Source of the DNA: Candidatus Methanorbis basalitermitum
GTDB lineage: Archaea > Halobacteriota > Methanomicrobia > Methanomicrobiales > Methanocorpusculaceae
Direction of reading: 5' to 3'
DNA: 39,445 nt
NCBI GenBank assembly: GCA_031287415.1
Contig: JAITSY010000009.1
Coordinates: 1 to 39,445, forward strand
Part shown: positions 1 to 38,795 of the stretch, piece by piece
Numbering within the stretch: the first letter of the stretch is position 1
Layout of the letters: the number at the start of each line of letters is the position of its first letter
Notes under the pieces: model-generated
Told to the model about the DNA's origin: nothing
The model's database searches: none
Seen by the model: only the letters and a program-made list of their open reading frames with translations
Position numbers and translations under genes: made by a program

Positions 1-196
1 AATGGAGAATGTTATACAAAGAATTTGAGGAGTTGTTCCCATCGGAACTATCTGCTATAGAGTACTTCATTAAAATTAGATACCCTGATGGTGTCATCTG
101 TCCGCATTGTGGTGGCCGATAACTGATCTACCGGAGAAAGAATCCGTATGGGCACTGATAAAAAGAGGCATTTATGGGCTGTATCACCATATTTCG
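1..196 (+). pseudogene. IS1595-like transposase, N-terminal remnant
   Basis: Reading from base 3 gives an acidic/aromatic stretch, then YFIKIRYPDGVICPHCGGR and an in-frame stop near base 120. The same frame continues after the stop with LIYRRKNPYGH, two more stops, and KEAFMGC. The R-x-PDG-x-x-CPHCG zinc-ribbon start followed by a YRRK...GH block is the usual beginning of IS1595/ISXO2-type transposases. At least three in-frame stops and the absence of any catalytic domain show it is dead. The true 5' end lies at or before the window edge. The remnant runs directly into the palindrome at 200-257. Confidence 0.6.
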
Positions 197-199
197 GTA

Positions 200-257
200 C
201 GGAATGATACCATAACTAACTAAGATGTATATCTTAGTTAGTTATGGTATCATTCCG
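200..257. repeat. 58-bp perfect palindrome, copy 1
   Basis: Two 27-bp arms, beginning CGGAATGATACCATAACTAA, are exactly complementary around a GTAT centre (227-230). A second copy lies at 21636-21693 and differs only by an A/T swap at 214 matched by the complementary swap at 243, so the pairing is kept. There is no T-tract, so a simple terminator is unlikely. It may be two transposon ends fused head to head, a minimal non-autonomous element, or a cruciform/RNA-hairpin signal. It sits just upstream of the start codon at 273. Confidence 0.9.
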
Positions 258-4508: not shown

Positions 4509-4694
4509 CAGCCATACAACGCTGCAAGCGGAACGCTTGCAGCTCTGGCAAGATATTTGCCCCGTAGCCGTTTGATGCAGGGAATCCACCACCCTGCAAT
4601 ACACGTGCACACCGCTGACGACGCAGGGCTTAGCCCTGCTTGCTGCTTGCGCAGATGTGCCGGCGGGCGTAACCTCTAATAAGAGGCGTGCAGC
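4509..4694 (+). repeat. Family A mosaic repeat, long copy
   Basis: This is a GC-rich mosaic between the convergent fen and idsA genes. It contains a perfect 10-bp hairpin GCTGCAAGCG-GAA-CGCTTGCAGC (4521-4543), a CTGCAATACACGTG block, a GCAGGGCTTAGCCCTGC hairpin, CTTGCTGCTTGCGCAGATGTG, and ends with ACCTCTAATAAGAGGCGTG then CAGC. The same ordered blocks occur at 21024-21178 and inverted at 27653-27777. Confidence 0.8.
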
Positions 4695-18187: not shown

Positions 18188-18333
18188 AGCTGCAACTGCT
18201 GCAAGCGTTCCGCTTGCAGCGTTGCATGGCAACGGATTCCCTGCATCAGGTGGCAACGGAGCAAGCATCTCGCCAGATGCGCAGTTGTTTCGCTGCCATG
18301 CAACTGCTGAATGCACTTGGCACGCAAGTGCGT
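18188..18333. repeat. Family A repeat, rearranged copy
   Basis: Directly after rpoL lies the perfect hairpin GCTGCAAGCG-TTC-CGCTTGCAGC (18198-18220), followed by GTTGCATGGCAACGGATTCC, a GCATCTCGCCAGATGC hairpin, GCTGCCATGCAACTG and GCACTTGGCACGCAAGTGC. The first hairpin is the reverse complement of the one at 4521-4543. The rest of the 324-base gap before thsA has only the promoter. Confidence 0.7.
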
Positions 18334-20259: not shown

Positions 20260-20382
20260 CGGACTTATCAGATTTAGGAGAGAGGTATATCCTCTCCGTA
20301 AACCTACTTTCTCTCTCAGATCGCTTGAAAAAATGTGATATAATTGTAAAAAATGTAATTATTCCTTAATATATTGTTTAAT

Positions 20383-20547
20383 TTATAATTTTAAATATAA
20401 TAACTTAGCTAGATCAAATGCTTGCTTTCCTGTACGGACGATAAGATCACAGTCGTCCTCCAATCCCTTTTTTACAATAGTTTTTGAAATCATTTTCAAT
20501 GTTTTTAGAGTTGGAATTATCAGTTTGAATGGGAACTGTTCTTCAAA
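20383..20547 (-). pseudogene. Unidentified short open frame spanning a family C repeat
   Basis: The reverse strand has a 54-codon open stretch reading FEEQFPFKLIIPTLKT and later DDCDLIVRTGKQAFDLAKLL, with a stop codon directly upstream and no good start. I do not recognise the protein. The first part overlaps the family C repeat. The copy at 11086-11130 reads FEEQFRFKLMIP and the 21739 copy reads SEELFPFKLII, so family C could be the residue of an old gene rather than a pure structural repeat. Both readings are open. Confidence 0.3.
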
Positions 20548-20550
20548 TCA
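20513..20550. repeat. Family C AT-rich hairpin repeat, copy 2
   Basis: CAGTTTGAATGGGAACTG (20521-20538) forms the 5-bp stem with the constant loop, flanked by GGAATTAT and TTCTTCAAATC as in copy 1. Similarity to copy 3 continues for about 30 further bases on the right. Confidence 0.7.
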
Positions 20551-20636
20551 GAAATATAACAATCTATTTCAATAGAGAACTACTAATCATTTATATATTT
20601 TCACCAAAATTGATAAGTCAAAAATGTTTTTTGGTG

Positions 20637-20952: not shown

Positions 20953-21023
20953 AGATTTCTGTATTACATCAATACCCTAAAGCAGTTGTGAAGTACAACA
21001 AACCATCGTAGTGATTCGGGAGA

Positions 21024-21178
21024 TGTTGCATGGTAGCGGAACGCTTGCAGGCTCTGGCGAGATGTTTGTCCCGTTGCCCTGCAATGCATGTGGCATGCCC
21101 ACACGCTGACGCAAGGTCCAGCCTTGCTTGCTGCTTGTGCAGATGTGTCGGTGTAACCTCTATCAGAGGTGTGCAGCT
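21024..21178 (+). repeat. Family A mosaic repeat, long copy
   Basis: The copy starts GTTGCATGGTAGCGGAACGC, continues through GCTCTGGCGAGATGTTTG, GTTGCCCTGCAATGCATGTG, ACACGCTGACGCAAGG, CCTTGCTTGCTGCTTGTGCA and GATGTGTCGGTG, and ends AACCTCTATCAGAGGTGTGC then AGC. It is the best full-length partner of 4509-4694. It ends 90 bases before the ferredoxin-thioredoxin reductase gene. Confidence 0.85.
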
Positions 21179-21267
21179 GATCCAAAAGAATCGGGAGCTA
21201 ATTGTCGAAAATTGGAGAGGCGGTTCACAAACCAAAACATGATATTCTGCGAAGAAAAATACATCAT

Positions 21268-21634: not shown

Positions 21635-21694
21635 ACGGAATGATACCATTACTAACTAAGATGTATATCTTAGTTAGTAATGGTATCATTCCGT
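21635..21694. repeat. 58-bp perfect palindrome, copy 2
   Basis: Two arms beginning CGGAATGATACCATTACTAA are exactly complementary around GTAT (21663-21666); one further A-T pair extends the copy here. It matches copy 1 (200-257) except for T at 21650 and A at 21679, a compensated pair. It lies 74 bases after the FTR gene, in front of a family C repeat. Confidence 0.9.
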
Positions 21695-21738
21695 AATTAT
21701 TTCGTAGTCTTTTGTTGATATGGACTATTAATATTTCT

Positions 21739-21772
21739 AATCTGAAGAACTGTTTCCATTCAAACTTATAAT
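21739..21772. repeat. Family C AT-rich hairpin repeat, copy 3 (inverted)
   Basis: GAAGAACTGTTTCCATTCAA and ACTTATAATTC is the reverse complement of the family C core, with stem GTTT/AAAC (21752-21765). Together with copy 2 it frames a 1.25-kb segment holding the DUF1805 and FTR genes in inverted-repeat fashion. The following stretch to 22078 has no convincing gene; it holds some family A-like fragments. Confidence 0.6.
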
Positions 21773-22078
21773 TCTGGTTTTCATTTGTTGTAACCCCCTA
21801 TTAGGGTTGCCCGTTGCCGAGGTGATCGCGGCAGCCGATTTATGGTGTGATGTGCTGGGCACATAGCAGTGGGCTATCATCCTTGCGGGGAGGATCATTG
21901 CAAGTCTTTCCACGGCCGTGAGAGCGGCACTCCGCGCTTCGACGTGCAACTCGTGCTGTGTTTCCCGAGTCACGCAAGCCTCGCTGTCTCGGCACGCCCC
22001 GTGAGGTTCCGCTGTCTTGCTGCTTGTGCGGCAAAGCTGTATGGAATGGAATGTTGCCAATTATAGCTTGCTGCAATG

Positions 22079-24767: not shown

Positions 24768-24798
24768 AACCGTGTTGGTTTATCTTACTTGTGCTTTG

Positions 24799-24865
24799 GC
24801 TGCACACCTCTGATAGAGGTGTGCCGTACATTGCAGGGCAACGGGTTCCGCTGCCATGCAGCTTT
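24799..24865 (-). repeat. Family A repeat, short inverted copy
   Basis: GCTGCACACCTCTGATAGAG contains the perfect 9-bp hairpin CACACCTCT-GAT-AGAGGTGTG (24803-24823), followed by TACATTGCAGGGCAACGGGT and CCGCTGCCATGCAGC. This is the short form, as at 11391-11457, in the other orientation. It is 124 bases upstream of lysC. Confidence 0.75.
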
Positions 24866-24988
24866 TGACGATAACATCCGGGTAAATGGTGGGCGGGCAC
24901 AGATGACGGGGGGCGATCGTGGGGCAATCATTATATCTGCCAGCAACGCCTAATCGATGGACACAACATCAACACAGGTGCTAACCAG

Positions 24989-27457: not shown

Positions 27458-27669
27458 CTTAGTTGCCTGGTTTTTTCTGGCATTCCGTGTGTGACCTGGA
27501 GCGATCGGATCTATCCGGAGAATGCATGAGTGATCGAGGCTGTGTTGTCGTATGAGGCCCAGGCCGGTGCTATGAGGTTTGACACGGATAAGCCGTATGT
27601 GTACGGTGTTGTTGTGGTAGCATTGTCTGATCCAAAACCTGGTATTGCTGCAGCTGCACGCCTCTGATA
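27458..27669 (+). pseudogene. Unidentified gene remnant cut by a repeat
   Basis: One frame reads SGIPCVTWSDRIYPENA, a TGA, then VIEAVLSYEAQAGAMRFDTD, KPYVYGVVVVALSDPKPG and a run of Ala that is already repeat sequence. Codon use and amino-acid pattern look like real protein, but I cannot name it and there is no start. It seems to be the tail of a lost gene interrupted at 27653 by the family A element. Confidence 0.35.
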
Positions 27670-27777
27670 GAGGTTACGCCGACACATCAGCGCAAGCAGC
27701 AAGCAAGGCTTTGCCTTGCGCCGTCTGCGGCATGCACGTGTATTGCATGGCAATGGAACCCGTTTCCATGCAACTTC
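27653..27777 (-). repeat. Family A mosaic repeat, long inverted copy
   Basis: GCTGCACGCCTCTGATAGAG and GTTACGCCGACACATCAGCG lead to CAAGCAGCAAGCAAGG, the hairpin CAAGGCTTTGCCTTG, then GCATGCACGTGTATTGCATG and CCATGCAACTTCC. Read in reverse, this is the block order of 4509-4694 and 21024-21178. The only other content of 27379-27898 is the remnant above. Confidence 0.85.
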
Positions 27778-27898
27778 CCATGTGGGGCTGCAACCATACC
27801 CAATAAGAAGACGCGTTTATTTATGCCGTGCTGTCCTATTACTACCTAATAGTACCTGTTTTTACGGTATCTGATAAAATTGCGGAGGTCCAAAACAA

Positions 27899-38389: not shown

Positions 38390-38395
38390 AAACGG

Positions 38396-38428
38396 AATTG
38401 TCTATTTCCATTCAAATAGATAATCCCT
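38396..38428. repeat. Family C hairpin, divergent copy 4 with covarying stem
   Basis: CTATTTCCATTCAAATAG (38402-38419) is a 5-bp stem around the same loop as the other copies, but the stem CTATT/AATAG replaces CAGTT/AACTG. The tail ATAATCCC matches GATAATTCC of copy 2 in reverse. The rest of 38429-38795 shows no convincing gene. Confidence 0.5.
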
Positions 38429-38795
38429 TAACTTAATATTTACTGATGTCCCCTTCAAACGTTATCCTGTTTTTAATAAAATTTCATCACTTCATTTTCA
38501 AGTATTGTGTGAGAGAAAGTAGGTTTACTGAGAATATAAACATATATATGATTATATTCTCCTTTTACGGTATCGTTTCGATATATCATTTTTCCAAATA
38601 ATACTCAGGATGCAGAAGTGATCTTCAAAAATGAAGAGGCTGTCCGTTATTTCCCAGTCATTTTCGCCTTTGACTGGAATGGGGCTCCAGACAAATCCAA
38701 ATCATGGGGTTTTGTACTGGTTTGTGTTCGCTGCATTGCAGCTGCTGTTATCCTTGTGCTGCTGGTTGGTGTTTGGCTGCTACGGGCAAAACAAT

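What the first reader, a model, noticed from the sequence alone, without database searches (positions are those of the whole stretch)
200..257. 58-bp perfect palindrome whose two copies differ by one compensated base pair
The arms are 27 bp and exactly complementary. The copies at 200-257 and 21636-21693 are identical except for A214/T243 versus T21650/A21679. A change in both arms that keeps pairing implies either selection on the hairpin/cruciform or a copying mechanism that uses one arm as template for the other. Neither copy is next to a T-tract or inside a coding region. This could be a minimal mobile element or a structural DNA signal.
Basis: seen in the sequence. Interest (0 to 1): 0.8.

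Follow-up and report, generated by a model that had tools for sequence, protein, structure and literature searches.

The report
Palindrome made from transposon ends
The 58-base palindrome is a mobile-DNA remnant, two mirror-image copies of one end of a local insertion sequence, and its "compensated" base difference comes from two versions of that end, not from selection on a hairpin.

Summary
Both palindromes are exact (27-bp arms, 4-nt centre) and differ only at the 15/44 pair. The genome (an unnamed archaeal MAG of 1.16 Mb) holds six such palindromes; none was found in the other 231 genomes of the order. Their source is clear. The outer 38 bp equal the right end (RE) of a multi-copy IS1595-family element in the same genome, with 8-bp target duplications, and the remaining 20 bp are the inverted copy of that RE's outer tip. 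The RE carries a short internal hairpin (CTAAGAT-GTAT-ATCTTAG), exactly where the mirror copy begins. The A and T palindromes match A-type REs (nine copies) and one T-type RE (beside a DNA methyltransferase gene), so each could inherit its base pair and no compensatory mutation is needed. Uncompensated arm mismatches occur in other copies (C9:29678, C27:83989). Two copies of one short element (C9:48382, window 200) have opposite centres (GTAT/ATAC), a spacer inversion. Arm copying plus spacer inversion is the known footprint of polymerase template switching. Best reading: a non-autonomous IS1595 derivative made by template switching at the RE hairpin. An unusual variant of ordinary MITE biology.

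The parts
200..257 (.). 58-bp palindrome, A-type: positions 1-38 read from the left tip are identical to the IS1595 element's right end, the rest is the inverted copy of its outer tip
21636..21693 (.). 58-bp palindrome, T-type: matches the T-type right end at C17:33680
1..199 (+). body of a short deletion derivative: left-end-proximal IS1595 transposase start (zinc ribbon, 6-119), internal deletion near 133-139, then the C-terminal transposase segment (..KRGIYGLYHHIS) that abuts the palindrome. The same body and palindrome occur at C9:48382-48638
21694..21777 (-). old, truncated copy of a ~115-bp MITE family (M2, left tip CGGAATTATC) that lies directly beside the second palindrome
20260..20335 (+). 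decayed IS1595-type right end: tip CGGACTTATC, hairpin GGAGAGAGGTATATCCTCTCC, then the conserved GTAAACCTACTTTCTCTCTC box
   Evidence: the hairpin is not more stable than shuffles
38488..38580 (-). decayed IS1595-type right end: tip CGAAACGATACC, hairpin GAGAATATAATCATATATATGTTTATATTCTC, then AGTAAACCTACTTTCTCTC

Best explanation
The palindrome is a non-autonomous derivative of an IS1595-family insertion sequence, made of two inverted copies of the element's right end (RE). SHOWN: the RE reads CGGAATGATACCATAACTAACTAAGATGTATATCTTAG|GTTAACC..., the palindrome is identical to it for 38 bp and then continues as the reverse complement of the RE's outer tip. INFERRED: during DNA synthesis a strand paused at the RE's internal quasi-palindrome CTAAGAT-GTAT-ATCTTAG, folded back or switched strand, and copied the outer tip, giving a perfect palindrome with an intact IS tip on both sides. 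INFERRED: each palindrome kept the allele (A or T at position 15) of the RE it was made from, and later template switching between the arms can invert the centre. INFERRED: because both tips look like intact transposase sites, a palindrome can serve as the end of a short element, as in 'left end - broken transposase - palindrome', which is present at two genomic sites.
For: Own-genome search finds about 10 REs, about 7 left ends and 6 palindromes with the same tip. Identity of palindrome and RE over 38 bp, diverging exactly after the inner arm of the RE hairpin. Perfect 8-bp target duplications in 4 left/right end pairs matched across contig ends: ATCTGAAA, AAGAAAAA, AAATCAAT, TTTTTGAA. The transposase is IS1595 family (NF033547, PF12762). 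The T allele of the second palindrome exists in an RE at C17:33680; the A allele is in nine others. C9:48382 and window 200 share the same 199-bp body with 2 SNPs, but their palindrome centres are reverse complements (GTAT/ATAC). Arm homogenisation plus spacer inversion is the published footprint of template switching (PMC8604942; PMC8794818).
Against: None of the palindromes has an 8-bp target duplication of its own (0-4 of 8 identical, null mean 3.1), so transposition of the 58-bp unit itself is not shown. The copy ends exactly at the IS tip on both sides, which template switching alone does not require. Only one T-type RE was found, so inheritance from RE alleles rests on a single copy. The four matched target duplications were picked from several unpaired left and right ends. 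The MAG is 74% complete and its IS copies are broken at contig ends.
Confidence: 0.7

Rival explanations
1. Deletion between two inverted IS copies. The RE core CTAAGATGTATATCTTAG is itself nearly palindromic, so two outward-facing REs in opposite orientation carry it as a direct repeat. Deletion between the two cores leaves tip-core-tip, i.e. the palindrome, with unrelated flanks.
For: Explains precise tips on both sides and the lack of target duplications. Explains 'left end - broken transposase - palindrome' as a nested insertion followed by deletion. The two tips of C27:83989 differ (CGG/TGG), and both tip alleles exist among the REs. A related 48-bp palindrome (C15:23222) has two different arm alleles.
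Against: Predicts mixed A/T arms more often than T/T arms when T-type REs are rare (1 of 10), yet the one T-bearing palindrome is T/T and none is A/T (few copies). Does not explain the centre inversion between two copies of the same element. Needs two neighbouring inverted copies each time.
Confidence: 0.2
2. Selection for a hairpin or cruciform (terminator, protein-binding site), with true compensatory mutation.
For: Arms are nearly perfect in all six copies and the fold is very stable.
Against: The A/T difference matches RE alleles. There are three uncompensated arm mismatches in two other copies. The palindrome is absent from 231 other genomes of the order. It sits beside mobile-element debris.
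Confidence: 0.04
3. Assembly artefact: palindromes or centre orientation mis-assembled from short reads.
For: MAG with many contigs that end inside the IS.
Against: Many contigs that break in the IS do so about 114-120 bp inside it, suggesting a k-mer of that size, longer than 58 bp (inference). Several palindromes lie deep inside contigs with unique flanks.
Confidence: 0.05

Closest known systems
MITEs derived from IS1595-family elements
   Same: Tips identical to the IS, no transposase gene, several copies, tips at both ends
   Different: Normal MITEs keep one left and one right end and duplicate the target; here both tips are right ends, almost nothing lies between them, and the 58-bp unit shows no target duplication
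Template-switch (quasi-palindrome) mutations (PMC8604942, PMC8794818)
   Same: Arm homogenisation, creation of perfect inverted repeats at imperfect ones, spacer inversion
   Different: Here the seed is the subterminal hairpin of a transposon end, and the product carries two transposase-type tips
PATEs of Haloquadratum walsbyi (PMC3119063)
   Same: Archaeal, transposase-free, palindromic, some formed as fused terminal sequences of an IS
   Different: PATEs have no terminal inverted repeats and derive from IS605-type elements; these end in IS1595 tips

Membership tests
IS1595-derived MITE | Termini identical to a resident autonomous element | tested here: met
   38 of 38 bp identical to the RE; transposase IS1595 family. 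No fully intact transposase copy was seen in this incomplete MAG
IS1595-derived MITE | 8-bp target-site duplication around the element | tested here: not met
   0-4 of 8 matches at palindromes, versus 8 of 8 at four IS copies. At C27:83989 a duplication of 7 of 8 (AAATGAAT/AAAGGAAT) fits palindrome + adjoining M2 MITE as one unit, found by eye among several groupings tried
IS1595-derived MITE | No transposase gene of its own | tested here: met
   58 bp; sequence read directly
IS1595-derived MITE | Multiple dispersed copies | tested here: met
   6 copies on 4 contigs
Template-switch product | Reverse-complement copy seeded at an existing inverted repeat | tested here: met
   Mirror copy begins right after the RE's CTAAGAT-GTAT-ATCTTAG
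Template-switch product | Spacer inversion between otherwise nearly identical copies | tested here: met
   C9:48382 versus window 200
PATE | IS605-type origin, no terminal inverted repeats | tested here: not met
   IS1595 transposase and IS1595-type tips at both ends

The most novel reading that the evidence does not exclude
The palindrome is a portable, two-faced transposon end. Once beside any DNA or related MITE it provides a working tip in either direction, so the IS1595 transposase can mobilise new composites ('left end - broken gene - palindrome', 'palindrome - M2'). New transposon ends would then be made by replication errors at the IS's own subterminal hairpin.
Probability: 0.3. Interest if true: 0.5.

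Novelty: new variant of a known kind. Interest (0 to 1): 0.3.

Why it matters
It shows how a 'compensated' base pair, often read as proof of selection on a structure, can arise with no compensatory mutation when both arms are copied from one allele. It also suggests a route by which insertion sequences make minimal palindromic derivatives and new ends.

Tried and rejected
Genome contigs and viral contigs pattern scans found no copies, though the window's own genome may be left out there. Empty-site comparison failed: relatives align only up to the neighbouring gene start, at about 67-76% identity, not across the intergenic region. Transposase relatives at E <= 1e-10 were absent from the other 32 genomes of the family, so REs could not be compared between species. 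Paper searches found no description of IS1595 palindromic derivatives in this library. Selection on the hairpin was rejected by the RE alleles and uncompensated mismatches. PATE membership was rejected on origin and tips.

Full report
OBSERVATION. Window 200-257 and 21636-21693 are 58-bp inverted repeats with 27 perfect pairs and a GTAT centre. They differ only at one pair, A/T versus T/A. Chance expectation is about 3e-12 per window, and the fold is far more stable than shuffles.

COPIES. The window is contig C32 of a 1.16-Mb archaeal MAG (74% complete). The genus is not named by the tools; gene content suggests a Methanomicrobiales-type methanogen (inference). The genome holds six palindromes: C9:29678, C9:48382, C14:5879, C27:83989, C32:200 and C32:21636. 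No copy was found in the 24 other genomes of the genus (arm, up to 3 mismatches), nor, as an exact-tip palindrome, in the other 231 genomes of the order.

SOURCE. The same tip begins two kinds of longer sequence. Left ends run CGGAATGATACCTTTACAAACGAAG... into a transposase start. Right ends run CGGAATGATACCATAACTAACTAAGATGTATATCTTAGGTTAACCTACTTTCTCTCTC.... The transposase is IS1595 family (PF12762, NF033547). Flanks of four left ends and four right ends on different contigs match as perfect 8-bp duplications, so these are ends of one IS with 8-bp target duplication. Each palindrome equals the RE for 38 bp from one tip (apart from the T allele and a few other changes) and then turns into the inverted tip. 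The turning point is the inner arm of a 7-bp hairpin that the RE already has.

THE COMPENSATED PAIR. Nine REs carry A at position 15 and one carries T (C17:33680). The T-type RE belongs to an element with an N6/N4 DNA methyltransferase gene beside the RE and an IS1595 transposase further in. The A and T palindromes thus match A and T right ends. Other copies have uncompensated arm mismatches: C9:29678 at pairs 3/56 and 27/32, C27:83989 at pair 1/58; C14:5879 has a rearranged centre.

COPYING SIGNATURE. C9:48382 and C32:200 are the same short element: left-end-proximal transposase, internal deletion, C-terminal transposase piece, palindrome. They differ by 2 SNPs over 199 bp, but their centres are reverse complements, GTAT versus ATAC. 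Two independent substitutions giving exactly this are unlikely, whereas spacer inversion is a known outcome of template switching between inverted-repeat arms (PMC8604942). Template switching also creates perfect stems and multibase compensatory changes (PMC8794818).

NEIGHBOURHOOD. Palindromes sit in mobile-element debris. Window 200 abuts a broken transposase. Window 21636 abuts an old copy of a ~115-bp MITE (M2). C27:83989 is 2 bp from an M2. C9:29678 is about 34 bp from an M2-type tip. At C27 the flanks of palindrome + M2 match at 7 of 8 bases (AAATGAAT/AAAGGAAT), which would fit mobilisation as one composite; this is one of several groupings examined by eye and is only suggestive.

WHAT IS NOT SHOWN. 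No palindrome has a target duplication of its own. So either the 58-bp unit does not transpose alone, or deletions have removed the duplications, or the palindromes form by deletion between inverted IS copies. The last is the main rival and may operate alongside template switching.

VERDICT. A real and well-explained feature: a right-end/right-end palindromic derivative of a resident IS1595-family element. Its identity is firm; the route of formation is inferred.

Noticed in passing
whole genome; window 11092, 20512-20617, 21694-21777: A ~115-bp MITE family (M2; tips CGGAATTATCNGTTTGAAT and CGGACTTATCGGTTTT). The tip pattern matches 142 times in 1.16 Mb (reversed-pattern control 5); no match in the 24 other genomes of the genus.
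   Followed up: partly
window 20260-20335 and 38488-38580; C11:55167, C13:28995, C26:11245: Right ends of several IS1595 lineages share a GTTAACCTACTTTCTCTC-like box preceded by a short hairpin whose sequence differs between lineages. Function unknown.
   Followed up: partly
C17:33680-36501 (L050): IS1595-type element with an N6/N4 DNA methyltransferase passenger gene; the transposase frame carries one stop.
   Followed up: partly
C13:21975-22025, C15:23222-23269, window 38393-38427: Similar small palindromes built from M2-type tips; in C15:23222 the centre resembles M2's own subterminal hairpin and the arms carry different alleles.
   Followed up: partly
window 4511-4665, 18191-18310, 21020-21180, 24788-24868, 27646-27780: Another interspersed repeat family (GTTGCATGGCAACGG / CACCTCTGATAGAGGTGTGC) with many inverted pairs.
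   Followed up: no
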